Source: Geodermatophilus tzadiensis (lineage in GTDB: Bacteria > Actinomycetota > Actinomycetes > Mycobacteriales > Geodermatophilaceae). Taken from it: a stretch of 64,000 nucleotides of DNA. The notes below the pieces were generated by a model, which was given only the letters and a program-made list of their open reading frames with translations, searched no databases and was not told the DNA's origin. Below, piece by piece: positions 27,535 through 64,000 of this stretch. Every line of letters starts with the position of its first letter. Position 1 is the stretch's first letter. Made by a program: the position numbers and the translations under genes. The DNA lies in NCBI RefSeq assembly GCF_003002915.1, contig NZ_PVTG01000004.1:124001-188000 (forward strand), read 5' to 3'.

Positions 27535-27577
27535 GGCGTCGTCCGACCGGCCGACACGTCCCCCGACGGGGGAGACC

Positions 27578-27736
27578 GGCGGACGCCGCCGAGTCGCCCT
27601 CCGGGGCGAGCCGGGGACCCACCGCACCACTGGGGTGAATCCCCTCCTGGCCACGCGCCGGGGGAGGTAGGGCCGCTTCCCGCCCGAACCCGTCAGCTGA
27701 CCCGGTAGGCGGCCATCGGAAGAACGGAGAGCCGCC
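27578..27736 (+). promoter_or_regulatory. ydaO/yuaA c-di-AMP riboswitch
   Basis: The region carries the conserved blocks of the ydaO class in order: GCCGGGGACCCA, TGGGGTGAAT, GGTAGGGCCG, then CCGAACCCGTCAGCTGACCC and GGTAGGC, then GGAAGAACGGAGAG. An outer helix can form between GGCGG (27578-27582) and CCGCC (27732-27736). In actinobacteria this class binds c-di-AMP and sits before resuscitation-promoting-factor and cell-wall hydrolase genes, generally switching them off when c-di-AMP is high. Here it precedes a secreted coiled-coil protein. Boundaries are approximate. Confidence 0.9.
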
Positions 27737-27917: not shown

Positions 27918-28844
27918 ATGGACCCCCGCACGACCTCGTCCGGCCGCGCCGCCCGATCCCGCCGGGCCGCCCGCCTCCGGACCACCCGCCGCCCCGGCCT
28001 CCTGCTCGGCGCCGCCGCGGCCGGCGCGCTGCTCGTCAACGTCGTCGTCGGCGCCGACCCGGCCGCGCAGGCCGGGCCGGAGACCACCGGCTCGGCCAGT
28101 GTCGCCGCGGAGCTCGGCCTGACCGCCGGGACCGGCGCGATCGAGGCCCCCGCCGACCTGCAGCCCCTCGAGGACCTCGCCGCCAGCCGCGGCAGCCGCG
28201 AGGCCGAGGAGGTCACCGCGCAGCAGGCGCAGGCCGCCGCCGACCAGGCCGTGCTCGACCAGCAGCGCGCCGAGGCCGAGGCCGCCGCCGCGGCCCAGCG
28301 CGCCGCCGAGGAGGCCGCGGCCGCCGAGGCGGCCGCCGCTGCCGAGGCCGCTGCCGCGGCCGCCGAGGCCGAGGAGGCCGCAGCAGCCGAGGCCGCCGCC
28401 GAGGAGGCCGAGGAGGCGCCCGCGTCCTCCGCGCCGTCCTCCGCCGCGTCCGCGGCCGGCTCCTCGACCGCGTCGACGGCCACCGCGACGATCACGAACA
28501 CCTCGGGCGCGGTCAAGGCGGTCGTGCAGGCGGCGGCGAACGCCGTCGTCAGCAACGTGGCCGGTGCCGGCTCGATCACGCTGGGCGGCACCCGGGCCAG
28601 CGCGGCCGACCCGGGCGGCCACCCCTCGGGCCTGGCCCTGGACTACATGACGATGAGCGACACCGCGCTGGGCAACGCGATCGTGGCCTACCACGTCGCG
28701 CACTGGGACGAGCTCGGCGTCGACTACCTGATCTACCAGCAGAAGATGCTCAGCTCGCCCGGCGGCAGCTGGTCGCCGATGGCCGACCGTGGCAGCGCCA
28801 CGGCCAACCACTACGACCACGTGCACGTCAACTACGTGGGCTGA
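27918..28844 (+). CDS. secreted coiled-coil protein with ARB_07466-like C-terminal domain
   Basis: A 308-residue exported protein. A basic N-terminus and a hydrophobic segment (LLLGAAAAGALLVNVVVGA, about 29-47) form a signal or anchor. Residues about 90-165 are an Ala/Glu coiled coil. The C-terminal 100 residues contain HPSGLALDYMT and HYDHVHVNYVG, the His/Asp layout of a VanY/D-Ala-D-Ala-peptidase-like fold annotated ARB_07466-like in other actinobacteria. A cell-wall remodelling role fits both the domain and the upstream c-di-AMP riboswitch. No strong Shine-Dalgarno at ATG 27918 (GGAG 13 bases upstream). Whether the domain is enzymatically active is unknown. Confidence 0.85.
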   Translation: MDPRTTSSGRAARSRRAARLRTTRRPGLLLGAAAAGALLVNVVVGADPAAQAGPETTGSASVAAELGLTAGTGAIEAPADLQPLEDLAASRGSREAEEVTAQQAQAAADQAVLDQQRAEAEAAAAAQRAAEEAAAAEAAAAAEAAAAAAEAEEAAAAEAAAEEAEEAPASSAPSSAASAAGSSTASTATATITNTSGAVKAVVQAAANAVVSNVAGAGSITLGGTRASAADPGGHPSGLALDYMTMSDTALGNAIVAYHVAHWDELGVDYLIYQQKMLSSPGGSWSPMADRGSATANHYDHVHVNYVG

Positions 28845-28878: not shown

Positions 28879-30030
28879 TCAGAGGCCGAGCTCGCGGGCG
28901 ATGAGCATCAGCTGCACCTCGGTGGTGCCCTCGCCGACCTCGAGGATCTTCGAGTCCCGGTAGTGCCGCGCCACCGGGTACTCGTTCATGAACCCGTAGC
29001 CGCCGTGCACCTGGGTGGCGTCGCGGGCGTTGTCCATGGCGGCCTCGCCGGCGACGAGCTTGGCCACCGCGGCCTCCTTCTTGAACGGCAGCCCGGCGAG
29101 CATCTTCGCCGCGGCGTCGTAGTAGGCGGCGCGGGCGGCCATGACCCGGGCCTCCATGCGGGCGATCTTGAAGGCGATGGCCTGGTTCTGCACGATCGGC
29201 CGGCCGAACGCCGAGCGCTCCCGCGCGTACCGCACGCTCTCGTCCACGCAGCCCTGGGCGGCGCCCACCGAGAGCGCGGCGATGGCGATGCGGCCCTCGT
29301 CGAGGATCCGCAGGAAGTTGGCGTAGCCGCGGCCGCGCTCACCGAGCAGGTTCTCCTCGGGCACCCGGACGTCGTCGAAGGACAGCGGGTGGGTGTCGCT
29401 GGCGTGCCAGCCGACCTTGTCGTAGGCCGGCTCGGCGGTGAACCCGGGCGTGGGCACCGGCACGAGGATCGAGCTGATCTCCTTGCGGCCGTCGGCGAGC
29501 TGCCCGGTGACCGCGGTGACGGTGACCAGCCGGGTGATGTCGGTGCCGGAGTTGGTGATGAACGCCTTGCTGCCGTTGATCGTCCACTGCCCGTCGGCCA
29601 GCACCGCCGTCGTCCGCGTGCCGCCGGCGTCGCTGCCGGCGCCGGCCTCGGTGAGCCCGAACGCGCCCAGCGCCTGGCCGCTGGTCAGCAGCGGCAGCCA
29701 CTCCTGCCGCTGCTCCTCGCTGCCGAACCGGTACACCGGCATGGCGCCCAGCGAGCACCCGGCCTCCAGCGTGATGGCCACGCTCTGGTCGACGCGGGCG
29801 AGCTCCTCGATGGCCAGGCACAGCGTGAAGTAGTCCCCGCCCATGCCGCCGTACTCCTCGGGGAAGGGCAGGCCGAACAGGCCCATGTCGGCCATCTGGC
29901 GGACGACCTCGTACGGGAACGTCCTGTCCCGGTCGTGCTGGTAGGAGACCGGCGCGACGACCTCGCGCGCGAACTCCTCGACGGTCTTCCTCAGCTGGAT
30001 CTGCTCGTCGGTCAGGCGGGTGTCGAGCAC
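28879..30030 (-). CDS. acyl-CoA dehydrogenase (isovaleryl-CoA type by context)
   Basis: A 383-residue FAD-dependent acyl-CoA dehydrogenase. GAFGLTEAGAGSDAGGTRT is the flavin/substrate signature, KAFITNSG and SAFGRPIVQNQAIAFKIARM are typical, and the C-terminal QVHGGYGFMNEYPVARHYRD block is intact. As last gene of a leucine-catabolic operon (carboxylase beta and alpha, HMG-CoA lyase) it most likely oxidises isovaleryl-CoA to 3-methylcrotonyl-CoA. GTG at 30028-30030 lies one base after the lyase stop. Sequence alone would not separate it from other short-chain acyl-CoA dehydrogenases. Confidence 0.92.
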   Translation of the reverse strand: MLDTRLTDEQIQLRKTVEEFAREVVAPVSYQHDRDRTFPYEVVRQMADMGLFGLPFPEEYGGMGGDYFTLCLAIEELARVDQSVAITLEAGCSLGAMPVYRFGSEEQRQEWLPLLTSGQALGAFGLTEAGAGSDAGGTRTTAVLADGQWTINGSKAFITNSGTDITRLVTVTAVTGQLADGRKEISSILVPVPTPGFTAEPAYDKVGWHASDTHPLSFDDVRVPEENLLGERGRGYANFLRILDEGRIAIAALSVGAAQGCVDESVRYARERSAFGRPIVQNQAIAFKIARMEARVMAARAAYYDAAAKMLAGLPFKKEAAVAKLVAGEAAMDNARDATQVHGGYGFMNEYPVARHYRDSKILEVGEGTTEVQLMLIARELGL

Positions 30031-30031
30031 G

Positions 30032-30972
30032 TCAGGACTCCTGGTCCGTAGGGGTGGGGAGCGTGGGGGCGAGCGCCGCGAGGGCGCGGGAGGGGCTGGG
30101 GCGGCCCAGCTGCCCGGCCATCCAGAGGCTGGTGCGGGCCAGCGCCGGCAGGTCGACGCCGGTGTCGACGCCGAGCCCGTCGAGCTGCCAGACGAGGTCC
30201 TCGGTGGCGAGGTTGCCGGTGGCGCTGCCGGCGTAGGGGCAGCCGCCGAGGCCGCCGGCCGACGCGTCGACCGTGGTGACCCCGTGCTGCAGGGCGAGCA
30301 GCGTGTTGGCCAGTGCCTGCCCGTAGGTGTCGTGGAAGTGGACGGCGAGCCGGTCGGCGCCCAGGCCCTCCCGGTCGAGCAGGGCCAGCAGGGCGGCCAC
30401 CTGGCCGGGGGTGCCGACGCCGATGGTGTCGCCGAGGCTGATCTCCGCGCAGCCGAACTCGGCCAGCCGCAGCGCCACGGCGGCCACCTGGTCGAGCGGC
30501 ACGGCGCCCTCCCAGGGGTCGCCGAAGCACATGGACACGTAACCGCGCACCGGCAGCCCGGCGGCGCGGGCCTGCTCGACGACCGGGGCGAAGGCGGCCA
30601 GCGACTCGGCGACGGAGCGGTTGAGGTTGCGGCGGGCGAAGGACTCCGTGGCCGAGGCGAACACCGCGACCTCGCGGGCGCCGGCCGCCACCGCCCGCGC
30701 CAGCCCCTTCTCGTTGGGCACCAGCACCGGGGCCCGGGCCGGCTGCTCGTCCCCGAGCATCGCGAGCAGCTCCTCGGCGTCGCCGAGCTGGGGGATCCAC
30801 TGCTTGGGCACGAAGCTGGTCAGCTCCACCGTGCGCAGCCCGGCGGCGGTCAGCCGGCGGACGAACTCCGCCTTGACCTCGACGGGCAGCGCGACGGCCT
30901 CGTTCTGCAGGCCGTCGCGGGGGCCGACCTCGTAGACCTCGACCCGCGCCGGCAGGCCGGCCAGCGGGGTGC

Positions 30973-30976
<4 letters not shown>
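30032..30976 (-). CDS. hydroxymethylglutaryl-CoA lyase
   Basis: A 314-residue HMG-CoA lyase: HMG-CoA to acetyl-CoA + acetoacetate, the last step of leucine breakdown. The TIM-barrel metal site begins [24 protein letters not shown] provides metal-binding His residues, and [19 protein letters not shown] is the family signature with the catalytic Cys. The GTG (30974-30976) overlaps the upstream carboxylase alpha stop as GTGA, and the acyl-CoA dehydrogenase starts one base beyond its own stop. Translation of the whole operon is evidently coupled. Confidence 0.95.
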
Positions 30977-34562
<3,586 letters not shown>

Positions 34563-34583
<21 letters not shown>

Positions 34584-48775: not shown

Positions 48776-49591
48776 GTGACAGCGACCCAGGAACGCACCA
48801 GCAGGACCGGCGACAAGCTCTCCGGCCGGGTGGCCTTCGTCACCGGCGGGACCCGGGGGATCGGGGCCGCCATCTGTCGCAGCATGGCCGCCCAGGGCGC
48901 CGACGTCGCCGCCGGCTACAGCGGCAACGACGAGGCCGCCGAGCGCTTCCGCAAGCAGTTCTGCGACGACTTCCCCGACCAGGGCTTCTCCGTGCACAAG
49001 GGCGACATCGGCAACCCCGACGACTGCCGGCGCACCATCGACGAGGTCATCCAGGAGCACGGCCGCCTCGACGTCCTGGTCAACAACGCCGGCATCACCG
49101 CCGACCGCACCGTGCTGAAGATGACCGACGACGACTGGCGCCGGGTCGTCGACGTCAACCTCTCCGGGGCCTTCTACCTGTCGCAGGCCGCGCTCAAGCA
49201 CATGCTCGAGCGGGGCAGCGGGCGGATCGTGATGATCTCCTCGGTCATCGGCGAGACCGGCGGCATCGGCCAGGCCAACTACTCCTCGGCCAAGGCCGGG
49301 CTGCTGGGCCTGACCAAGACGCTGGCCCGGGAGGCCGCGATGCAGGTGCAGCGCTCCGGCAAGACCGACGGCCTCGGCATCACCGTCAACGCCGTGACGC
49401 CGGGCTACACCGCCACCGAGATGCTCGACAGCGTCCCGGACAAGGTGCTCGACGGGCTCAAGGCCAAGATCCCGCTGGGCCGGCTGGGCGAGCCGGAGGA
49501 GGTCGCCCGCGTCGTGCACTTCCTCGCCGCCGACGCCTCGGGCTACATCACCGGGCAGGTGTGGGGGGTCAACGGCGGGCTGGACATGTAG
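48776..49591 (+). CDS. phaB: acetoacetyl-CoA reductase / 3-oxoacyl-ACP reductase
   Basis: A 271-residue short-chain dehydrogenase. It has the cofactor loop TGGTRGIG, NNAG in VLVNNAGITADRTVLKMT, and catalytic Ser/Tyr/Lys in MISSVIGETGG and ANYSSAKAG. The ADRTVLKMTDDDW segment is shared by PhaB and FabG. The neighbours (acetyl-CoA carboxylase, ketosynthase III, PHA synthase) favour PhaB: acetoacetyl-CoA + NADPH to (R)-3-hydroxybutyryl-CoA. GTG 48776 follows AGGAGG by six bases. It opens the four-gene operon, 44 bases before the carboxylase. Confidence 0.9.
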   Translation: MTATQERTSRTGDKLSGRVAFVTGGTRGIGAAICRSMAAQGADVAAGYSGNDEAAERFRKQFCDDFPDQGFSVHKGDIGNPDDCRRTIDEVIQEHGRLDVLVNNAGITADRTVLKMTDDDWRRVVDVNLSGAFYLSQAALKHMLERGSGRIVMISSVIGETGGIGQANYSSAKAGLLGLTKTLAREAAMQVQRSGKTDGLGITVNAVTPGYTATEMLDSVPDKVLDGLKAKIPLGRLGEPEEVARVVHFLAADASGYITGQVWGVNGGLDM

Positions 49592-49635
49592 CCGCAGCAG
49601 GACCGCTGACCACCACCACCGAGGGAGGGGACCGG

Positions 49636-55128
<5,493 letters not shown>

Positions 55129-55153
55129 CCGCCACGACCTGAGAGGACTCGGC

Positions 55154-57115
55154 GTGAACGCGTTCGTCCTGAACCGGCACGGCCGCATGGTGTTCCCCTC
55201 GAACATCATGCCGGAGCTGGACTTCTCCACCATGGAGACGCTCGAGCAGCTCGACAGCGTCATCCGGCGTGACTTCGAGACCAAGGCCCCCAGCGGCACC
55301 GAGATCCTGGAACGGGTGCGCACCGGCGCCTACGAGAGCCGGTACGACCTGATGCGGGACCTCGCGCTCAACCTGTTCTGGGCCAACCGGTTCTCGATCA
55401 CCATGTACGACAAGCGGCCGACCCGCTGGGGCGACCTCCCGCGGACCCGCCCCGACGTCTTCCTCCCCGTCCTGGAGCCGTGGGAGGACGGCGAGGCCAA
55501 GGTCACCGGCGTCCAGGAGGCCTACCCGACGCTGCCGTCACGGTGGAACGAGGGCTGCGAGGACCGGATCTTCCAGATCCTGTTCGACGTCTTCGCCAAC
55601 CGGCGCAACCACGCCTCCACGCTGCCGGCGGTCAAGCCCACGGTCGCGGGGTTCCTGGAGCAGCCCGGCGCGCTGACCTTCCGGCTGCGCGGCTACGACC
55701 CCGACTACCCCGTGTACGACTACACCGACATCCTCGACGTCTCCGAGGACGTCCCCGAGCTCGAGGCGCTGCACCGCTGGGCCATGGTGCTGCACAACCA
55801 GTACCCGTGGGACCGCTCGCAGGTGGAGCTGGCCGACGCGAGCCAGATGCAGGACGACGACTGGGTGGTCGCCTTCCACCCGCGGGACAAGGAGGTGCGG
55901 GCCTTCCTGCGCCGGTTGCGCGCCGGCCACGCACCGCGGCCGGTCGCCGGGCCGCGCGAGTCCCGTCCGCCGGTGCGGCCCTACCCCGAGCTCGACGTGC
56001 GCCGGAGCTTCTCGGTGCAGCCGCGGATCGAGGCACTGGCCGCGGTGCACGGCGACCAGGTGTGCGGCAACGACGACCTGATCCGCAACACCGCCTACAA
56101 CTGGTCGCCGATGAGCGCCGAGGAGATCGCGGCCAAGACCGGTATCGAGCAGCGCGAGTACAGCTCGCTCCCGCTGGAGGAGCTCGCCCTGCAGGCCGCC
56201 GAGGCCGCGCTGGAGAAGTCGGGGCGGCAGCCGGAGGAGATCGGCGCCGTGCTGGTCTGCACGTGCACCAGCTCCCGGCTCATCCCGTCGCTGGCCACCT
56301 ATCTCTGCGGCCAGCTGGGCATGCACCAGGTCTACGCCGCGTACGACCTCATCGCCGCCTGTGCCGGGATGCCCTACGGCGTCGCCGACGCCGTGCGGAT
56401 GCTGCAGGAGGTCGAGCGGCCGGTCCTCGTCGTCTGCGTGGAGAAGTTCTCCGACAAGATCGGCAACGTCCGCACCTCGCGGATGATCTTCGGGGACGGC
56501 GCGGCGGCGCTGGTCGTCGGCCCGGCCCCCGAGGGCACCGAGGGCGACATCGACTACATGAAGACCTACGCCAGCGGCCCGGCCAGCGAGGTGAACTCGA
56601 TCCTCTGGCCCAACCCGGAGTTCGACAACAACATCACCGTGTTCGGCCCGCAGGTGAAGGCGCTGGCCGGCCGCTACCTGTCCCAGATGATCGACGAGCT
56701 GGGGCAGCTGCCGGCGCCCGACGGCCGGGACGGCTCGCTCATGGACGCCATCGACCTGATCGTCCCGCACCAGGCGAACAAGACGATGGTCATCGGCCTG
56801 GCGGAGCGTGCCGGCCTCACCGCCGACCAGCTCTACTTCAACATCGAGCAGGTGGGCAACACCTCCTCGGCGAGCATCCCGCTGGCCATCCACGACGCGG
56901 TCCGCGACGGGGTGATCACCGAGCCGGTGCGGGTCTTCGCGCCGGGGTTCGGGGCGGGCGCCGTGGCCGGGTACGCGGTCATGCGGGTCGACCCGGCGGT
57001 GGTCGCCGTCCAGACGGCGTCCGTGCCGCACGAGCAGGGAGCCGACCTGCCGGCCCCGACGGCCTCGGCGCAGACCGGGTCGGCGTCGGAGGGGATGCAG
57101 GAGGCCTTCGGCTGA
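55154..57115 (+). CDS. beta-ketoacyl synthase III with a novel N-terminal domain
   Basis: A 653-residue protein. The C-terminal 370 residues are a KAS III (FabH-like) thiolase fold with an intact triad: Cys403 in DLIAACAGMPYG, His539 in IVPHQANKT, Asn569 in QVGNTSSASIP. The first 270 residues (DLMRDLALNLFWANRFSITM, WNEGCEDRIFQILFDVFANR) are a mostly helical domain I do not recognise and not part of FabH. KAS III enzymes condense an acyl-CoA with malonyl-ACP, or, like NphT7, with malonyl-CoA to give acetoacetyl-CoA. The position between an acetyl-CoA carboxylase and downstream of phaB suits the latter. GTG 55154 lies 25 bases after the carboxylase stop. Confidence 0.9.
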   Translation: MNAFVLNRHGRMVFPSNIMPELDFSTMETLEQLDSVIRRDFETKAPSGTEILERVRTGAYESRYDLMRDLALNLFWANRFSITMYDKRPTRWGDLPRTRPDVFLPVLEPWEDGEAKVTGVQEAYPTLPSRWNEGCEDRIFQILFDVFANRRNHASTLPAVKPTVAGFLEQPGALTFRLRGYDPDYPVYDYTDILDVSEDVPELEALHRWAMVLHNQYPWDRSQVELADASQMQDDDWVVAFHPRDKEVRAFLRRLRAGHAPRPVAGPRESRPPVRPYPELDVRRSFSVQPRIEALAAVHGDQVCGNDDLIRNTAYNWSPMSAEEIAAKTGIEQREYSSLPLEELALQAAEAALEKSGRQPEEIGAVLVCTCTSSRLIPSLATYLCGQLGMHQVYAAYDLIAACAGMPYGVADAVRMLQEVERPVLVVCVEKFSDKIGNVRTSRMIFGDGAAALVVGPAPEGTEGDIDYMKTYASGPASEVNSILWPNPEFDNNITVFGPQVKALAGRYLSQMIDELGQLPAPDGRDGSLMDAIDLIVPHQANKTMVIGLAERAGLTADQLYFNIEQVGNTSSASIPLAIHDAVRDGVITEPVRVFAPGFGAGAVAGYAVMRVDPAVVAVQTASVPHEQGADLPAPTASAQTGSASEGMQEAFG

Positions 57116-57996
57116 GCAGCCGGACGGGCCACAGCACGGTCCGCGCCGCCGACGGCACCCGGCTGCGCGCCTGGAGCAGCGACGGCGACGGCGTCCCGGT
57201 CCTGCTGTGCAACGGGCTGGGCGCGCCGGCGGCGGCCTGGCCGCGGCTGGTGGCCCCCGGCAGCGGCTTCCGGGTGGTCACCTGGGCCCACCGCGGGCTG
57301 GCCGGCTCGCAGCGCCCGGCCGACCGCGACCGGGTGCGGGTCGAGGACCACGCCGACGACGCCCGCGCCGTGCTCGACGCCTTCGGCCTGTCCTCGGCCA
57401 CGGTCGTGGGCTGGTCGCTCGGGGTGAACGTGGCGTTCGAGCTGGCGCTGGAGCACCCCGACCGGGTGCGCTCGCTGCTCGCCGTCGCCGGGGTGCCCGG
57501 CGGGTCGTTCTCCGCGCTGTTCGCGCCGCTCGGCGTGCCCCGGCGGCTGCGCACCCCGGCGGGGCGGCTGAGCAGCCGGCTGCTGCCGCTGGTCGGGCCG
57601 CTGCTGCCGGTGCTCGTGGGCAGCCTGCCGCCGTGGCCGGAGCTGCTGACCGCCGACGGGGTGCGCGGCCCGGCGCGGGAGGCCGGGCACCCGGCGGCCC
57701 TCTACACGGTGCTGCGCGAGTTCTCCCGGCACGACTGGCGCTGGTTCCGGCACCTGGTGCTCGCCGTCGCCGAGCACGCCCCGCTCGACGTCGGCGCGGT
57801 GCGGTGCCCGGTCACCTTCGTGGCCGGCAGCCACGACGCGCTGGTCGACGTCGCCGACGTCGCGGCCGCGGCGCGCGCCGTCCCCGGCGCCCGGCTGCGC
57901 ACAGTCCCGGCCACCCACTTCGTGCCGCTGCAGTACCCGCGGCTCATGGCGGCCGAGCTGCGGGCCCTGGTGGCCCGGGAGCGCCGGGTGTCCTGA
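57112..57996 (+). CDS. alpha/beta hydrolase with probable CTG start
   Basis: A 294-residue alpha/beta hydrolase: nucleophile elbow VVGWSLGVNVAFE (Ser in GWSLG), acid in VAGSHDALVDV, His in PATHFVPLQYP. The coding frame has no ATG, GTG or TTG near its beginning; CTG at 57112 overlaps the ketosynthase stop as CTGA and has CAGGAGG seven bases upstream, so I take it as the start. It is the last gene of the phaB-carboxylase-ketosynthase operon and ends four bases before the convergent phaC stop. It could be a thioesterase, PHB-oligomer hydrolase or editing enzyme for the pathway; sequence alone does not decide. Confidence 0.82.
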   Translation: MSSRTGHSTVRAADGTRLRAWSSDGDGVPVLLCNGLGAPAAAWPRLVAPGSGFRVVTWAHRGLAGSQRPADRDRVRVEDHADDARAVLDAFGLSSATVVGWSLGVNVAFELALEHPDRVRSLLAVAGVPGGSFSALFAPLGVPRRLRTPAGRLSSRLLPLVGPLLPVLVGSLPPWPELLTADGVRGPAREAGHPAALYTVLREFSRHDWRWFRHLVLAVAEHAPLDVGAVRCPVTFVAGSHDALVDVADVAAAARAVPGARLRTVPATHFVPLQYPRLMAAELRALVARERRVS

Positions 57997-58000
57997 GCGG

Positions 58001-59749
58001 TCAGGCGCGGGCCGGCACCCGGTCGCGGACGTAGGAGCCGGGCGCCGGCTCCAGCGGCGGGTGCGCCGCGCTGCCGAGGGTCTCCGGTGCGGGCACCTCG
58101 TCGCCGGAGCGCTCGATCGCCCACTCCGACCACGGCTCCCACCAGCTGCCGGTGTGCTCCTCGGCCGCCGCGCGCCAGGCGTGCGCGTCGGGGCCGGGCT
58201 CGCTGCCGGTCCAGTAGCGGGCCTTGGGGTTGCCCGGCGGGTTGACCAGGCTCTGGATGTGGCCGCTGGAGCTCAGCACGAAGGTGCTCGGCCCCGACAG
58301 CAGCTGGGTGGTCCGGTAGCAGCCGTGCCACGGGGTCAGGTGGTCGGTGAGCGCGCCGGTGACGAACGTGGGCACGGTGATCCGGCTCAGGTGCACCGGC
58401 GTGCCGAGCACGGTGAGCGCCCCGGGCCGGACCAGCGCGTTGGTCGAGAAGATGTCCAGGAACTGCTCGTGCAGCTTCGCCGGCAGGTTCGTGCCGTCGG
58501 CGTTCCAGGCGAGGATGTCGAACGCGGGCGGGTCCTCGCCCATCAGCCACTGGCGCACCAGGTAGTTGAAGACCAGGTCGTCGGGGCGCATCCAGGTGAA
58601 CACCGAGCCCATCTGCCGGGCGGTGATGACGCCCTGCCGGGTGGAGTTGCGCCGGGCGACGTCGAGCAGCCGGGGACCGGAGAAGGCGCCCAGCGGGGCG
58701 CGGCTGGCGAAGTCGAGCAGGGTCACCGCGTAGCCGGCGGCGGCCACGCGCTCGTCGCCCTGGGCGGCGAGGTGGTTGAGCGCCGTCGTCATCACCTGGC
58801 CGCCGGCGCACAGGCCCAGCGTCGTGACGTCGGGGGAGCCGGTGATCTCGCAGGCGGCGTCGACCGCGCTGAGCACGCCGCCGGCGTAGGTGTCGAGGTC
58901 CCACTCGGACTGCGCCTTGGTGGGGTTGCGCCAGCTGATCATGAAGACCTGCAGGCCCCGGCTCACGGCGTACTCGACCAGGCTGCGGCCCGGGCGGAGG
59001 TCGAGGAAGTAGAAGCGGCCGATCGGCGGCGGCACGATGACCAGCGGGCGGGCCCGGACCCGCGGCGTCGAGGGCGTGTACTGGATCAGCTCGACGATCT
59101 CGTCGCGGTACACGACGGCACCGGGGGTGACCCCGAGGTCCTCGCCGACGGTGAAGGCGCTGCGGTCGACCTGCGAGGGCATCCCGCCGTTGCGCACCAG
59201 GTCGGTGAGCGCGTTGCGGGCACCGCGGACCACGCTGCGCCCGGCGGTGTCGAAGGCCCGCTTCAGCGCGGCCGGGTTGCCCAGCAGGGTGTTGGTGGGG
59301 GCCATGGCGCTGGTCAGCGCGGTGAAGAGGAAGCGCACCTGCTCGACCTCGCGCCAGTCGGCGCCGCCGGCCGCGAAGTCCTCGACCAGGCGGTCGAGCG
59401 CCCCCGTGGTGGCCAGGTAGGACTGGACGAGCCGCCGGTAGCCCGGGTGCAGCGACCAGGCGGGGTCGGCGAAGCGGGCGTCCTTGGGCGACGGGGCGAT
59501 CTCGTCGGTGCCGCGCAGGATGCGCAGCGCGTCGCGCCCCAGCCGCACGGCCTCGCGCGCCAGCGGCCGCGGCTGCGCGAGGGTGGCGGCCACGCCGCGC
59601 ACCATGCCCCGCGTGGAGGGCAGGGTGACCGGCTCGCCGCCCTCGACCGGCACGCCCTGCGGGGTGTCCCGCGGCGCCCGTTCCGCGTCCGCGGCTCGCC
59701 GGCCGGTCGCCGGGCGCGGGCGCGGCGGTGTCGTCGTCGTGGTGGTCAC
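58001..59749 (-). CDS. phaC: poly(3-hydroxyalkanoate) synthase, class I type
   Basis: A 582-residue PHA synthase, the usual size of class I enzymes that act without PhaE or PhaR. The lipase-box variant GLCAGGQ gives catalytic Cys314; the Asp is in TGALTDHLTPW and the His in SSSGHIQSLVNPPG. QYTPSTPRVRARPLVIVPPP and FMISWRNPTKAQSEWDLDTY are typical synthase blocks. It polymerises (R)-3-hydroxyacyl-CoA into granules. GTG 59749 is chosen because AGAGGGGG precedes it; an in-frame ATG at 59773 lies inside a CRP-type site. It converges on the phaB operon and follows the ole operon with its own promoter. Confidence 0.95.
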   Translation of the reverse strand: MTTTTTTPPRPRPATGRRAADAERAPRDTPQGVPVEGGEPVTLPSTRGMVRGVAATLAQPRPLAREAVRLGRDALRILRGTDEIAPSPKDARFADPAWSLHPGYRRLVQSYLATTGALDRLVEDFAAGGADWREVEQVRFLFTALTSAMAPTNTLLGNPAALKRAFDTAGRSVVRGARNALTDLVRNGGMPSQVDRSAFTVGEDLGVTPGAVVYRDEIVELIQYTPSTPRVRARPLVIVPPPIGRFYFLDLRPGRSLVEYAVSRGLQVFMISWRNPTKAQSEWDLDTYAGGVLSAVDAACEITGSPDVTTLGLCAGGQVMTTALNHLAAQGDERVAAAGYAVTLLDFASRAPLGAFSGPRLLDVARRNSTRQGVITARQMGSVFTWMRPDDLVFNYLVRQWLMGEDPPAFDILAWNADGTNLPAKLHEQFLDIFSTNALVRPGALTVLGTPVHLSRITVPTFVTGALTDHLTPWHGCYRTTQLLSGPSTFVLSSSGHIQSLVNPPGNPKARYWTGSEPGPDAHAWRAAAEEHTGSWWEPWSEWAIERSGDEVPAPETLGSAAHPPLEPAPGSYVRDRVPARA

Positions 59750-59826: not shown

Positions 59827-60840
59827 TCAGCGGCCGGGCGGAAGACCCCCGCGCCGTGACACCGGCGACACCCCGCCGGCGGCGTACCAGGAGGCCAGCC
59901 GGGCGAACCCCTCCTCGAGGGACACCGCGGGCCGCCAGCCGAGGGCCGCCCGGGTGCGGCGCTGGTCGAACCAGTGCGCGGTGGCCAGCTGCTCGGCGAG
60001 GAACCGGTTCAGCGGCGGCACCGAGCGCCGCCGGGTCGCCTCCCACACCGCCTCGACCGCGGCACCGGCCACCCAGGCCGCGGCGAAGGGCACCCGCCGG
60101 CGCGGGCCGGGGACGCCCGCCGCCCGGCACAGCCGGCCGAGGACCTCGGCGATCGGGCGCGGCTCCCCGTTGGAGACGACCAGCGCCTCGCCGTGCACCG
60201 GGCCGCACGCGTCCGCGGCGGCGACCAGGGCCGCGGCGGCGTTGTCGACGTAGGTGGTGTCGACCAGCGCCGCGCCCGATCCGACGACCGGCAGCCGACC
60301 GCTCCGGGCGCGCTCGACGATCCGCCCGACGAGCTGGGTGTCGCCCGGGCCCCACACCAGGTGGGGCCGGACGGCGAGCACCGCCAGGCCGGGGGAGTCG
60401 GCGGCCAGCGCGTCGAGCTCGGCGATCGCCTTGCTGCGCGAGTACCGGCCGCGGGCCCGCCGCGGGTCGGCCGGCTCCGCGCCGACGCCGGCCAGCGCCG
60501 TCCCGGCGTGGGCCACCGACGGGGAGGACACGTGCACCAGCCGGCCCACACCGGCCGCCCGGCACGCCGCGACGACGGCCCGGGTGCCCTCGACGTTGGC
60601 GTGCCGGTACTCCGCCCACGGCCCGGTCACGTCGACCTTGGCGGCCAGGTGCAGCACGGCGTCCTGCCCGTGGGCCGCGCGGCGCACGACCGCCGGGTCG
60701 GCGACGTCGCCGAGCACCTCGGCGCACGGCAGTCCCGCCGGGCGGCGCTGCAGGACGGTGACCTCGTCGCCGCGCTCGAGCAGCGCGGTGGCCGTGGCCC
60801 GGCCGAGCATGCCGCTGGCGCCGGTGACCAGCACCCTCAC
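59827..60840 (-). CDS. oleD: OleD-like NAD(P)-dependent 3-ketoacyl/2-alkyl reductase
   Basis: A 337-residue extended short-chain dehydrogenase of the 3-beta-HSD/epimerase type. VLVTGASGMLGRATATAL binds the cofactor, VSSPSVAHAG and RYSRSKAIAE contain the catalytic Ser, Tyr and Lys. In Ole pathways OleD reduces the 2-alkyl-3-ketoacid from OleA to a 2-alkyl-3-hydroxyacid. The GTG at 60838-60840 overlaps the OleBC stop (GTGA), and the gene order oleA-oleBC-oleD supports the call more than the sequence, which alone could be another sterol-dehydrogenase-like enzyme. Confidence 0.85.
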   Translation of the reverse strand: MRVLVTGASGMLGRATATALLERGDEVTVLQRRPAGLPCAEVLGDVADPAVVRRAAHGQDAVLHLAAKVDVTGPWAEYRHANVEGTRAVVAACRAAGVGRLVHVSSPSVAHAGTALAGVGAEPADPRRARGRYSRSKAIAELDALAADSPGLAVLAVRPHLVWGPGDTQLVGRIVERARSGRLPVVGSGAALVDTTYVDNAAAALVAAADACGPVHGEALVVSNGEPRPIAEVLGRLCRAAGVPGPRRRVPFAAAWVAGAAVEAVWEATRRRSVPPLNRFLAEQLATAHWFDQRRTRAALGWRPAVSLEEGFARLASWYAAGGVSPVSRRGGLPPGR

Positions 60841-63380
60841 GGGCGGGCGCCGGCCAGGAACCGGGCCGCCCGGCGGGCCACCTCGGCGCGGTCGACCTTC
60901 GACTGGTGACGGACGTCCACCGGCAGGCGGGCGGTGGTGAGCACCGCGGCCACCTCGACACCGGCGGCCGCGCGCACCGCGTCGGCCAGCCCCGCGTCGG
61001 CCAGCCCGGTCCGCCGGCGCCGGCGGCGCCCCGACGGCACGACGACGACCACGACGACCTGCGCGCCGGCCGGGCCGACACCGACCGCCGCGGCCGCCGC
61101 CACGCCCTCGAGCCGCTCCACCCGCTGCTCCACGCCGACGGGGGTGACCACCCCGCCGGCCGTGGTCACGACGTGCTGCAGCCGCCCCTCGACCCACAGC
61201 CGGCCCTCGGCGTCGAGGTGGCCGACGTCGCCGGTGCGGTGGAAGCCGGGGTCCCGCGACGCCGCCCGCTCCAGGGCCCACAGCGCGTCGTAGCGGTCCT
61301 TGACGTGCGCGGCCGAGACGCAGACCTCACCGGTCACGCCAGGGGCGTCCGTGAGCGGGCCGTCGGCGGCGCCGTCGGGGGACAGCGGGCTGACCCGCAC
61401 GGTGACGCCGGGCAGCGGGGCGCCCACGCAGACGCCCTCGCCGTCGCCGGCGGCCTCGATGCCGGCCAGCGAGACGTCGGTGACGGGCAGCGCCTCGGTC
61501 ATGCCGTAGGGGGTGTGCGCGTCGGCATCGGGCAGCACGTCGCGCAGCGACCGCAGCAGCGCCGCCGGGACGGGCGCACCGGCCGACATCAGCAGCCGGA
61601 CCCGGCCCAGCGCCGTCCGCTGGGCGGCGGACAGGTCACCGGCGGTGGCCGCGACCCGCCGCAGCGCCGCGGGGGAGGCGAAGACGACGGTCGCGTCGAC
61701 CGCGGCCGCGGCGTCGGCGAGGGCGGGGGCGGTCAGCGACCCCGGCGCGGTGACGTCGACGTCGGGGACGGCCGAGCCGATGCCCAGCGCCGGCCCGAGG
61801 ATGGCGAACGGCGCGAACGCGGCCACGAACCGGTCGCCGCTGGTCAGGCCGTAGGTGGCCCGCACCAGCTCGAGCTGGGCGGCGGCCTGGCGGTGGGTGT
61901 AGACGACGCCCTTGGCCGGCCCGGTGGCGCCGGAGGTGAACAGCACGGCGCAGTCGTCGTCCACCGGCGGCTCGGCGGGCACCGGCGCCGAGCGGCCGCG
62001 CGCCTCCAGGTCCTCGAGCGTGTGCGCCGCACCGAGGCCGACGCCCGCGCGGCCGGCCGCGATCCGGGAGCCGGGCAGGCCCATGACCCGGGCCGCGGCC
62101 AGTCCCGCGCGGCTGCCGACGACGTGCCGGACGCCCGCGCCGCGCAGCGCCCGGCGCATGCCGCGCAGGCCCAGGCCCTTGTCGGCCACGACGACGACCG
62201 CGCCGGCCCGCCACACCGCGTACACGGTGGCGGTGAGGTCGGCCGAGGGCTCCACCAGCAGCGCGACGCGGTCACCGGGCCGCACCCCGGCGGCGGCCAG
62301 GCCGGCGGCGAGGTCGCGCACCCGCCGGGCCAGTGCCGACCAGGACACCGCCGCGCCACCCACCTCGGCGACCGCCACCGCGTCGTCGGCCGCCCGCTCC
62401 TCCAGCGCCGACCACAGCCGGCGGCCGCCGTCGCCCGCCGGGCGCGCGGGGGCGGGGGTGCGGTCGAGGTCGGCGACCCACTGGGCGACGGCCCGCGCGT
62501 ACTGCGGGGCGTCCTCGGGGAGCAGGTGCGAGGCGCCCGCGTAGCGGTGCAGCTGCGCCTGGGGCAGCCGCTCGCGCAGGTCGGCGAGGTAGCGCTCGCC
62601 GAAGACCGGGTCGCGCGGCCCCCACAGCAGCAGCGCGGGGACGTCGAGGCCGCGGATCGCCTCGGCGACGGCCTCCTGCGCCGCGCGGGAGGGGTGGCCG
62701 GGTGAGAAGGGGATGTCGGCCACGAAGTCGCCCACCGACCGCCGGCGCGCCGCGGTCCGGTAGGGGGCGGCGAAGGCGCGGCGGACGTCGGCGGGCAGCG
62801 GCGGGCGGGACAGCGCCGTCGTCGCCCGGACGAACACCGGCGTGCCGACGGTGACCGCCGCCCGCACGCCCGGCGCGTCCGCGGCACGGATGAGCAGCGG
62901 GCCCCAGTCGCCCTCCGGCATGGCGACGGCGGTGTTGGCGAGGACGACGCCGCGCAGCTCCGCCCGGTGCGCCAGCGCCCAGCCCAGCGAGATCACGCCG
63001 CCCCAGTCGTGCCCGACGGTGACCACCGGGCCGGTGAGGCCGAGCGCGGCGGTGAGGTCGCCGAGGTCGGCGATGCGCTGCGCCAGCGGCCGCGGCCCGG
63101 CCAGCCGCTCGGAGAAGCCCATGCCGAGCTGGTCGGGGGCGACCACCCGCCAGCCGGGCGGGGCGGCGGCGACCAGCCGCCGCCACAGGTAGGACCAGGT
63201 GGGGTTGCCGTGGACGCACAGCAGCGTGCCGACCGGGTCGGGCACGCCGTTGTCGAGGACGTGCCAGGTGTGCTTGGCCCCGGTGGCGTCGGCGACGGTG
63301 ACCGTGCGCGACCACGCGGGGTCCAGGCCCGGCAGGTCCGGGAGGAGGCCGGGCTCGCCGGTGCTGTCGGGGGCCGTCAC
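60837..63380 (-). CDS. oleBC: OleBC fusion: beta-lactone decarboxylase + beta-lactone synthetase
   Basis: An 847-residue fusion. Residues 1-315 are a haloalkane-dehalogenase-like hydrolase with nucleophile Asp125 in VGHDWGGVIS, CVHGNPTWSYLWR upstream and the His in AGASHLLPEDAP (OleB). After a short linker, residues about 330-847 are an AMP-binding enzyme with FTSGATGPAKGVVYTH and YGMTEALPV (OleC). OleC closes 2-alkyl-3-hydroxyacids to beta-lactones; OleB decarboxylates these to cis-olefins. Fused OleBC is known in actinobacteria such as Micrococcus. GTG at 63378-63380 overlaps the oleA stop; a GTGA overlap also joins it to oleD. Confidence 0.9.
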   Translation of the reverse strand: MTAPDSTGEPGLLPDLPGLDPAWSRTVTVADATGAKHTWHVLDNGVPDPVGTLLCVHGNPTWSYLWRRLVAAAPPGWRVVAPDQLGMGFSERLAGPRPLAQRIADLGDLTAALGLTGPVVTVGHDWGGVISLGWALAHRAELRGVVLANTAVAMPEGDWGPLLIRAADAPGVRAAVTVGTPVFVRATTALSRPPLPADVRRAFAAPYRTAARRRSVGDFVADIPFSPGHPSRAAQEAVAEAIRGLDVPALLLWGPRDPVFGERYLADLRERLPQAQLHRYAGASHLLPEDAPQYARAVAQWVADLDRTPAPARPAGDGGRRLWSALEERAADDAVAVAEVGGAAVSWSALARRVRDLAAGLAAAGVRPGDRVALLVEPSADLTATVYAVWRAGAVVVVADKGLGLRGMRRALRGAGVRHVVGSRAGLAAARVMGLPGSRIAAGRAGVGLGAAHTLEDLEARGRSAPVPAEPPVDDDCAVLFTSGATGPAKGVVYTHRQAAAQLELVRATYGLTSGDRFVAAFAPFAILGPALGIGSAVPDVDVTAPGSLTAPALADAAAAVDATVVFASPAALRRVAATAGDLSAAQRTALGRVRLLMSAGAPVPAALLRSLRDVLPDADAHTPYGMTEALPVTDVSLAGIEAAGDGEGVCVGAPLPGVTVRVSPLSPDGAADGPLTDAPGVTGEVCVSAAHVKDRYDALWALERAASRDPGFHRTGDVGHLDAEGRLWVEGRLQHVVTTAGGVVTPVGVEQRVERLEGVAAAAAVGVGPAGAQVVVVVVVPSGRRRRRRTGLADAGLADAVRAAAGVEVAAVLTTARLPVDVRHQSKVDRAEVARRAARFLAGARP

Positions 63381-64000
63381 CAGGCGAGCTCGAGGCAGGA
63401 GACGTTGAGGCCCGAGCCGATGCCCATGAGCAGCACGCGGTCGCCGTCGGCGAGGGAGTCCTGCTGGCCGGCCAGGGTGTAGGGCACCGACGCCGGGCCC
63501 AGGTTGCCCCGGGTGGGGAACGTCGTGGGGACCAGCGCCGGGTCGATGGCGAACCGGTCGCACATCGCCTGGGTGTGCACCTTGGACACCTGGTGGACGA
63601 CGTAGCGGTCCATGCCCGCCGCCCAGTCGACCTCGCCGGCGGCCTCGGCCCACATGTCCTGCGACAGCTGCAGCCCGGCGTCGAGCAGGCCCTTGAGGTC
63701 GGTGCGCATGAGGTCGTTGTCGCCGGTGCACAGCTCGTGGTGCTCGGTGCCGGCGCGGCTGACCGAGGCGACCAGGCGGTGGCCCTCGGGGTGCCGGTCG
63801 GCCCGGCCGAGCACCATCGCGACCGCGCCGGAGCCCAGCGTCAGGGTGGCGAACTGGGCGATGACGTCCTTGGAGACGGTGCCCGGCCCGTTGAGCCGCT
63901 CGACGGTGCGCTCCTGGACGGGGCGGGCGTCCTCGCCGTTGACGACGAGGGCGTACTCCACCATGCCCGACTCGATCATCGCCGCCGCGAGCTCCATGCC
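63377..64000 (-). CDS. oleA: OleA-type acyl-CoA thiolase, C-terminal part (5' end outside the window)
   Basis: The last 208 codons of a thiolase-superfamily protein; the N-terminal part with the catalytic Cys lies beyond base 64000. The visible half has the His in YVVHQVSKVHTQAM and the Asn in TFPTRGNLGPASVP, and ends GIGSGLNVSCLELAW, as in OleA. OleA joins two fatty acyl-CoAs head to head (Claisen condensation) to a 2-alkyl-3-ketoacid. Its stop overlaps the OleBC start. An OleA-related 3-oxoacyl-ACP synthase is the alternative, but the adjacent oleBC and oleD genes settle it for me. Confidence 0.88.
   Translation of the reverse strand, partial: GMELAAAMIESGMVEYALVVNGEDARPVQERTVERLNGPGTVSKDVIAQFATLTLGSGAVAMVLGRADRHPEGHRLVASVSRAGTEHHELCTGDNDLMRTDLKGLLDAGLQLSQDMWAEAAGEVDWAAGMDRYVVHQVSKVHTQAMCDRFAIDPALVPTTFPTRGNLGPASVPYTLAGQQDSLADGDRVLLMGIGSGLNVSCLELAW

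What the first reader, a model, noticed from the sequence alone, without database searches (positions are those of the whole stretch)
48776..59749. Candidate thiolase-free, malonyl-CoA-driven polyhydroxybutyrate system
Seen: phaB, a single-chain acetyl-CoA carboxylase, a KAS III and a hydrolase in one tight operon that converges (4 bases between stops) on a class I phaC. No thiolase (phaA) is present in this locus. Known: NphT7, a KAS III relative, makes acetoacetyl-CoA from acetyl-CoA plus malonyl-CoA irreversibly, and PhaB plus PhaC turn that into PHB. Inference: this locus is a natural version in which ATP spent by the carboxylase pulls flux into polymer, with the hydrolase as editor or depolymerase. 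I know of no described native operon of this kind.
Basis: partly seen in the sequence, partly recalled or inferred. Interest (0 to 1): 0.85.

Follow-up and report, generated by a model that had tools for sequence, protein, structure and literature searches.

The report
Malonyl-CoA-fed bioplastic operon without thiolase
Some bacteria appear to make the storage plastic PHB with an unusual enzyme fed by an ATP-spending carboxylase instead of the textbook first enzyme, and in related bacteria the two enzymes occupy the same slot in the gene cluster, which suggests nature already uses a trick that engineers had to build.

Summary
The operon is real: phaB, a single-chain acetyl-CoA carboxylase (ACC), a 653-aa KAS III and a hydrolase, converging on phaC (4 bases between stops). 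Corrections: PhaC scores closer to class II than class I models, and only the locus, not the genome, lacks thiolases. The KAS III is a distinct clade with a 255-aa N-domain lacking Pfam or PDB matches. It recurs in Actinomycetota and Acidobacteriota, mostly near phaB; no thiolase lies within 6 kb at 44 of 44 well-flanked loci. In nine acidobacterial loci KAS III and PhaB are one polypeptide. In that family, five of six sampled phaC loci lacking the KAS III carry a BktB-type thiolase there instead; the sixth contig ends too early. In 112 genomes of the window's family, KAS III and ACC occur together in 44, singly in 5, neither in 63; all 45 KAS III genomes have PhaC. The catalytic triad is invariant in 50 aligned sequences; the ACP-docking arginine is missing in 46. 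Best reading: the KAS III condenses acetyl-CoA (perhaps propionyl-CoA) with malonyl-CoA, replacing PhaA and driving PHA synthesis with ATP. Biochemistry is untested; the hydrolase's role is unsupported. Eight full-text searches found no description.

The parts
48776..49591 (+). phaB-like SDR reductase (acetoacetyl-CoA reductase)
   Evidence: Pfam adh_short_C2 7.7e-60; best NCBIfam model TIGR01829 AcAcCoA_reduct 285 bits, cut-off 302
49636..55128 (+). single-chain multidomain acetyl/propionyl-CoA carboxylase: biotin carboxylase, BCCP, ACC central region, carboxyltransferase
   Evidence: Pfam PF00289, PF02786, PF02785, PF00364, PF08326, PF01039 in that order; eukaryotic ACCs match in 5 stretches
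55154..57115 (+). [quoted passage not shown]
55154..55918 (+). N-terminal domain of the long KAS III (residues 1-255) without a recognised relative
   Evidence: no Pfam match better than E 0.07 among 50 members; model pLDDT 87.5, pTM 0.83; Foldseek PDB best E 0.89
57112..57996 (+). alpha/beta hydrolase (PcaD-like, start codon unsure), accessory, role unknown
   Evidence: Abhydrolase_1 9.9e-23; below the cut-off of each of the 25 NCBIfam models shown (of 31)
58001..59749 (-). phaC, PHA synthase (class II model scores above class I)
   Evidence: PhaC_N 6.1e-53; TIGR01839 588 bits, TIGR01838 498 bits

Best explanation
This is a native PHA (probably PHB or PHBV) biosynthesis locus in which the thiolase step is replaced by decarboxylative condensation. 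The single-chain ACC spends ATP to make malonyl-CoA (inferred from the architecture of a characterised relative). The long KAS III condenses it with acetyl-CoA (and possibly propionyl-CoA), releasing CO2 and giving acetoacetyl-CoA (or 3-ketovaleryl-CoA) (inferred). PhaB reduces this to (R)-3-hydroxyacyl-CoA, and PhaC polymerises it (inferred from family). Shown here by sequence: gene order, domain content, an intact KAS III triad, absence of the ACP-docking arginine in the window protein and 46 of 50 aligned sequences, fusion of the KAS III to PhaB in one lineage, and exchange with a BktB-type thiolase at the same kind of locus in relatives. Loss of CO2 would make the first carbon-carbon bond effectively irreversible, so polymer could form at acetyl-CoA/CoA ratios at which a thiolase would run backwards.
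For: (1) KAS III and PhaB are one open frame of 888-899 aa in 9 of 80 loci, all from Acidobacteriota (domains confirmed for L117 only). (2) In 150 genomes drawn from the family of one of these, the full-length fusion is in 5, all with a class III PhaC (E up to 1e-60), against 6 of the other 145 (p 7.8e-7). Of those 6 phaC loci without the fusion, 5 carry a thiolase beside phaC or phaB and the sixth contig ends too early; the 5 thiolases score above the cut-off of BktB model NF006552. None of the 11 KAS III loci compared with them shows a thiolase in the stretch held. (3) Of 44 loci with 6 kb or more on both sides: phaB in 38, ACC in 35, PhaC in 25, thiolase in 0 within 6 kb. (4) In 112 genomes of the window's family, KAS III and ACC together 44, KAS III alone 1, ACC alone 4, neither 63 (p 2.8e-25); PhaC in 45 of 45 KAS III genomes and 49 of 67 others (p 3.8e-5). 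So this ACC is not generally required in the family. (5) Triad invariant in 50 of 50; the FabH arginine in HQANxR is kept in 28 of 28 ordinary KAS IIIs where the motif was found (29 tried) but is T/N/P in 46 of 50 long KAS IIIs. NphT7, which uses malonyl-CoA, is reported to lack an arginine required for ACP binding (PMC5432608, passages). (6) The genome has a separate cluster with a FabH over its model cut-off, a fabD-like and an acyl-CoA-carboxyltransferase-like gene and a fabF-like gene (by eye), so this KAS III is not its only FabH-type enzyme.
Against: No biochemistry. The AGGSR motif suggested for CoA recognition in NphT7 is absent (0 of 50), and the FabH tryptophan that I recall stacking on CoA adenine is E/D/Q/S. 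The ACP arginine is present in 4 of 50, all Vicinamibacteria-like. PhaC is not within 6 kb at 19 of the 44 well-flanked loci, and phaB not found at 6 of them; the Pseudonocardia loci show no PhaC in the stretch held although those genomes have one elsewhere. ACC is absent from the acidobacterial loci. Thiolases and a second phaC exist elsewhere in this genome. The co-occurrence p-values ignore phylogeny.
Confidence: 0.8

Rival explanations
1. The KAS III makes a different 3-ketoacyl-CoA (for example 3-ketovaleryl-CoA from propionyl-CoA, or longer), so the locus adds a co-monomer while an ordinary thiolase elsewhere supplies acetoacetyl-CoA.
For: The thiolase it replaces in relatives is BktB-type, which I recall as broader than PhaA; the ACC type also carboxylates propionyl-CoA (PMC6491548); the chain-length gate residue is Ile (45), Leu (4) or Met (1) of 50, not Phe (F87 rule from PMC8231600 passages); PhaC is closer to the class II model; a long-chain olefin-type cluster lies next to phaC in the window.
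Against: A PhaB-like reductase beside or fused to the KAS III points to a short chain, and no second condensing enzyme lies in the operon.
Confidence: 0.12
2. The KAS III is a second FabH that starts fatty acid synthesis from acetyl-CoA and malonyl-ACP; its place beside phaB, ACC and phaC reflects shared acetyl-CoA chemistry.
For: KAS III fold; an ACC of this type supplies malonyl-CoA for fatty acids in S. erythraea (PMC6491548); one relative (L103, the same contig as G292:C57) has a fabD-like gene 9 kb away; 4 of 50 keep the ACP arginine.
Against: The genome has another cluster with its own FabH; FabD within 10 kb in 1 of 80 loci and FabF in 0; ACP arginine missing in 46 of 50; 143 bits against the fabH cut-off of 292; exchange with a thiolase at phaC loci.
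Confidence: 0.05
3. The linkage is incidental: the ACC is a general malonyl-/methylmalonyl-CoA source and the KAS III serves an unknown secondary product.
For: Some copies stand apart from phaB and phaC (for example L062, L106, L110).
Against: Recurrence with rearranged order in separate lineages, fusion to PhaB and thiolase exchange.
Confidence: 0.03

Closest known systems
Engineered NphT7-PhaB-PhaC pathway (Synechocystis, sugarcane)
   Same: Acetoacetyl-CoA from acetyl-CoA plus malonyl-CoA replaces the thiolase, then PhaB and PhaC (PMC10530661 and PMC7933458, passages)
   Different: Assembled by engineers from different organisms; NphT7 has no 255-aa N-domain (recalled) and has the AGGSR motif (PMC5432608 passage) that the long KAS III lacks; here ACC and KAS III lie in a native operon
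phaA-phaB-phaC type PHB loci
   Same: phaB and phaC; in the acidobacterial loci also synthase-subunit-like and PhaR-repressor-like genes
   Different: phaA thiolase replaced by the long KAS III (with ACC beside it in Actinomycetota)
NphT7 acetoacetyl-CoA synthase of Streptomyces sp. CL190
   Same: KAS III triad, lack of an arginine used for ACP binding
   Different: no AGGSR motif, extra N-domain, PHA context; direct sequence comparison not made
SACE_4237, actinobacterial homodimeric ACC (PMC6491548)
   Same: BC-BCCP-central-CT single chain
   Different: SACE_4237 is essential and serves fatty acids; here no match was found in 64 of 112 family genomes and the gene tracks the KAS III

Membership tests
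PhaCAB-type PHB operon | phaC and phaB present | tested here: met
PhaCAB-type PHB operon | phaA thiolase in the operon | tested here: not met
   no thiolase domain in the operon; none within 6 kb at 44 of 44 well-flanked loci
NphT7 acetoacetyl-CoA synthase | KAS III Cys-His-Asn triad | tested here: met
   50 of 50 aligned
NphT7 acetoacetyl-CoA synthase | lack of the ACP-binding arginine | tested here: met
   Thr in the window; 46 of 50 aligned not Arg; feature from PMC5432608 passage
NphT7 acetoacetyl-CoA synthase | AGGSR motif | tested here: not met
   0 of 50
NphT7 acetoacetyl-CoA synthase | acetoacetyl-CoA from acetyl-CoA plus malonyl-CoA | not testable with these tools
   needs enzyme assay
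FabH (FAS II initiator) | score over the fabH model cut-off | tested here: not met
   TIGR00747 143 bits, cut-off 292
FabH (FAS II initiator) | ACP-docking arginine in HQANxR | tested here: not met
   T544 in the window
Actinobacterial homodimeric multidomain ACC | BC-BCCP-central-CT in one chain | tested here: met
Actinobacterial homodimeric multidomain ACC | CT domain groups with SACE_4237 | not tested
   SACE_4237 sequence not fetched
Class I PHA synthase | TIGR01838 over cut-off and best of the class models | tested here: not met
   498 bits, cut-off 623; class II model scores 588, cut-off 855
PhaB acetoacetyl-CoA reductase | TIGR01829 over cut-off | tested here: inconclusive
   best model, 285 bits, cut-off 302
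Intracellular PHA depolymerase (hydrolase) | depolymerase model over cut-off | tested here: not met
   NF050089 34.8 bits, cut-off 300; TIGR02240 25.5, cut-off 250.6

The most novel reading that the evidence does not exclude
A native, multi-phylum branch of PHA biosynthesis in which a distinct KAS III subfamily with its own N-terminal domain, fed by a dedicated ACC in Actinomycetota and fused to PhaB in Acidobacteriota, has displaced the thiolase and makes the committed step ATP-driven and irreversible.
Probability: 0.72. Interest if true: 0.85.

Novelty: new variant of a known kind. Interest (0 to 1): 0.8.

Why it matters
PHB synthesis is taught as thiolase-reductase-polymerase, with the reversible thiolase as the thermodynamic bottleneck and control point. 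A natural ATP-driven replacement would show that evolution found the same bypass that engineers built with NphT7, supply ready-made enzymes (including a one-chain KAS III-PhaB fusion) for bioplastic production, link polymer storage to malonyl-CoA and ATP status, and explain PHA loci without phaA. It also exposes a domain of 255 residues with no recognised relative.

Tried and rejected
KAS III as second FabH: rejected (own FAS-type cluster, missing arginine, no FAS genes nearby). ACC as the general housekeeping ACC of the family: rejected, since no match was found in 64 of 112 genomes at E 1e-60. Chance or misread ORFs: rejected. The viral-contig scan with the N-domain alignment found 20 pattern matches and no relative. 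In the phylum search 265 of 396 genomes match at E 1e-20, but below the top two the listed matches start at about residue 240 or later, that is, in the KAS III part; only the window's genome and G292 show a full-length match. Foldseek and VIA-align gave no match for the N-domain alone; this does not prove a new fold (VIA-align compared only 81 chains). Profile of the N-domain against PDB sequences: two weak Csa5 matches at E 0.4, taken as chance.

Limits on counts. The scan found 86 relatives and kept 80. Residue counts rest on 50 sequences: the window and 49 of the 80 loci, chosen for diversity and length. phaB counts used a 42% identity floor, so divergent phaB (L103, 39%) is missed; thiolases were sought with six thiolases of the window's own genome. 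PhaC by whole genome was tested for 50 of the 80 loci, chosen to favour loci outside Geodermatophilus, Blastococcus and Modestobacter (7 of the 50 are from these) and those without PhaC in the flank; 9 of the 44 PhaC_N genomes there have only weak partial matches (E 5e-7 to 1.3e-5), as the class III PhaC of L117 does. The TIGR01836 matches are all below the curated cut-off. The Fisher value for thiolase exchange (0.0013) used 5/5 against 0/7; the output shows 8 KAS III loci with PhaC in view, none with thiolase, and 3 more without PhaC in view, also none. Two of the four ACC-only genomes (G481, G482) are 80-88% complete. Genome tables were compared by hand from the listed handles. The letter tally printed is of the neighbouring column; 28 of 28 arginines is read from the listed motifs (L034 gave no motif). 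In the tree 28 of 29 controls were kept, and there is a long-branch warning.

Literature: of 10 searches of an open-licence library, 8 were aimed at such a system and 2 at the ACC and the FabH arginine. I saw listings, and passages or sections of five papers; they show engineered NphT7 routes but no native operon or fusion of this kind. Subscription papers and preprints are not covered.

Full report
WHAT IS THERE. The window lies in a 4.87-Mb genome; the nearest named relative at this locus is Geodermatophilus dictyosporus (97% identity in the KAS III N-domain). That the window's family is Geodermatophilaceae is inferred from such named relatives. At 48776-59749 the sequence encodes, on the + strand, a PhaB-like reductase, a single-chain carboxylase, a 653-aa KAS III and an alpha/beta hydrolase, and on the - strand a PHA synthase; the converging stops are 4 bases apart. 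The carboxylase has biotin carboxylase, BCCP, the ACC central region and carboxyltransferase. This is the architecture described for SACE_4237, which carboxylates acetyl-CoA and propionyl-CoA but not palmitoyl-CoA (PMC6491548; abstract, Results part 1 and Discussion read). The PhaC scores better with the class II than the class I model, both below cut-off.

WHERE IT OCCURS. A scan of the species-genome collection with the N-domain alignment found 86 relatives and kept 80: Geodermatophilus, Blastococcus, Modestobacter, Pseudonocardia, other Actinomycetota including Thermoleophilia and Acidimicrobiaceae MAGs, Vicinamibacteria, Acidobacteriaceae and Sulfotelmatobacter MAGs, and a few MAGs labelled proteobacterial. 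Of 44 loci with at least 6 kb on both sides, phaB lies within 6 kb in 38, ACC in 35, PhaC in 25, and a thiolase in none; so 19 of 44 have no PhaC that near. Over all 80, a thiolase lies within 10 kb in 3, at 7-9 kb. Gene order differs between lineages (for example window, L085, L090, L103, L108), so the association is not just inherited synteny.

FUSION AND EXCHANGE. In 9 loci from Acidobacteriota (L111-L113, L115-L120) the KAS III reading frame runs on into phaB, giving one protein of 888-899 aa. For L117 Pfam confirms both halves, and the neighbours by best model are a class III PhaC, a PhaR-type synthase subunit and a PhaR repressor, each below its curated cut-off. Among 150 genomes drawn from that family, a full-length fusion is in 5 (a sixth match covers only the PhaB part) and a class III PhaC (E up to 1e-60) in 11; all 5 fusion genomes have PhaC. 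I fetched the 6 phaC loci without the fusion. Five have a thiolase beside phaC or phaB (L124, L125, L126, L127, L129); L128 ends 0.7 kb after phaC and cannot be judged. The five thiolases score over the cut-off of BktB model NF006552. In L125, L126, L127 and L129 the order is thiolase-phaB converging on phaC, then the synthase subunit, then the repressor. In L116, L117, L119 and L120 it is the same, with the KAS III-PhaB fusion where thiolase and phaB stand; L118 agrees as far as its contig goes, while L115, L136 and L137 are arranged differently. None of the 11 KAS III loci compared shows a thiolase in the stretch held. I read this as non-orthologous displacement of the thiolase by the KAS III; it is the strongest single piece of evidence.

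CO-DISTRIBUTION. In the 112 genomes of the window's family that were searched, the long KAS III is in 45, this ACC in 48 and PhaC in 94. KAS III and ACC coincide in 44; KAS III alone is in 1, ACC alone in 4, neither in 63 (Fisher 2.8e-25). PhaC is in 45 of 45 KAS III genomes and 49 of 67 others (3.8e-5). These values ignore phylogeny, but presence varies within genera: 1 positive of 23 in g238, and 3 negatives of 26 in the window's own genus, for KAS III and ACC alike. Of 50 genomes behind the loci (7 of them Geodermatophilus, Blastococcus or Modestobacter), 44 have a PhaC_N match, 9 of these weak and partial, and 4 of the 6 misses have a class III PhaC. The two left are a Streptosporangiaceae MAG and a Thermoleophilaceae MAG.

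SUBSTRATE CLUES. By alignment to Yersinia pestis FabH, the ACP-docking arginine (R249 in E. coli numbering, recalled) is Thr544. Over the 50 it is T 38, N 7, R 4, P 1, while 28 of 28 ordinary KAS IIIs with the motif keep R (29 tried). NphT7 is reported to lack an arginine required for ACP binding (PMC5432608, passages). The four with R are Vicinamibacteria-like, so the rule is not absolute. The chain-length gate (F87 in E. coli FabH; PMC8231600, passages) is Ile in 45, Leu in 4 and Met in 1, compatible with short primers but not diagnostic. Against a simple NphT7 analogy: no AGGSR motif, and Glu where FabH has the tryptophan that I recall stacking on CoA.

ALTERNATIVES WITHIN THE GENOME. Another cluster holds a FabH over its model cut-off, a fabD-like and a carboxyltransferase-like gene and a fabF-like gene by eye (L122), so fatty acid synthesis has its own KAS III and probably its own carboxyltransferase (6 carboxyltransferase matches in the genome). 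Thiolases exist elsewhere, and a second phaC lies on another contig (L123). The organism is therefore not thiolase-free, and acetoacetyl-CoA could also come from those.

VERDICT. The steps shown are anatomy, association, fusion, exchange and residue changes; the reaction itself is inferred. The chemistry is known from NphT7 and from engineered NphT7-PhaB-PhaC pathways (PMC10530661, PMC7933458, passages), so this is a new natural variant of a known pathway rather than a new category. The hydrolase is found within 3 kb at 23 of 80 loci, and its role is open.

Noticed in passing
59827-63997 (-): An oleABCD-type long-chain olefin cluster directly follows phaC: OleD-like (best NCBIfam NF042422), a fused hydrolase plus AMP-ligase resembling OleB-OleC, and the C-terminal part of an OleA-like KAS III cut by the window end; scores are below the curated cut-offs.
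   Followed up: partly
27577-27726 (+): c-di-AMP riboswitch (ydaO/yuaA leader), 59 bits, upstream of a gene at 27918-28844.
   Followed up: no
28879-34583 (-): Gene block with an acyl-CoA dehydrogenase-like, an HMG-CoA-lyase-like, a biotin-carboxylase-like and a carboxyltransferase gene (CT match 534.9 bits); looks like leucine degradation, named by recall from the translations.
   Followed up: no
L123:8423-11033: A second PHA synthase of the same genome (PhaC_N match), followed by an overlapping gene that reads like an alpha/beta hydrolase (by eye; not tested against families).
   Followed up: partly
L104, L121: Contigs labelled Alphaproteobacteria and Proteobacteria MAG carry KAS III genes that group with Vicinamibacteria (L104) or are 80% identical to the window's over the part held (L121); mis-binned contigs are possible.
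   Followed up: no
G478 and G480 (L062, L074): Two genomes of the family carry two long KAS III copies each; the copies in L062 and L074 show no ACC or phaB (42% identity or more) in the stretch held, which for L074 has only 458 bases upstream.
   Followed up: no
L108:13079-13441, L114:7461-7823, L039:5152-5523: A small regulator (HTH_3 in L108) recurs in these PHA loci, within 6 kb at 12 of 80; possibly a PHA regulator, role untested.
   Followed up: no
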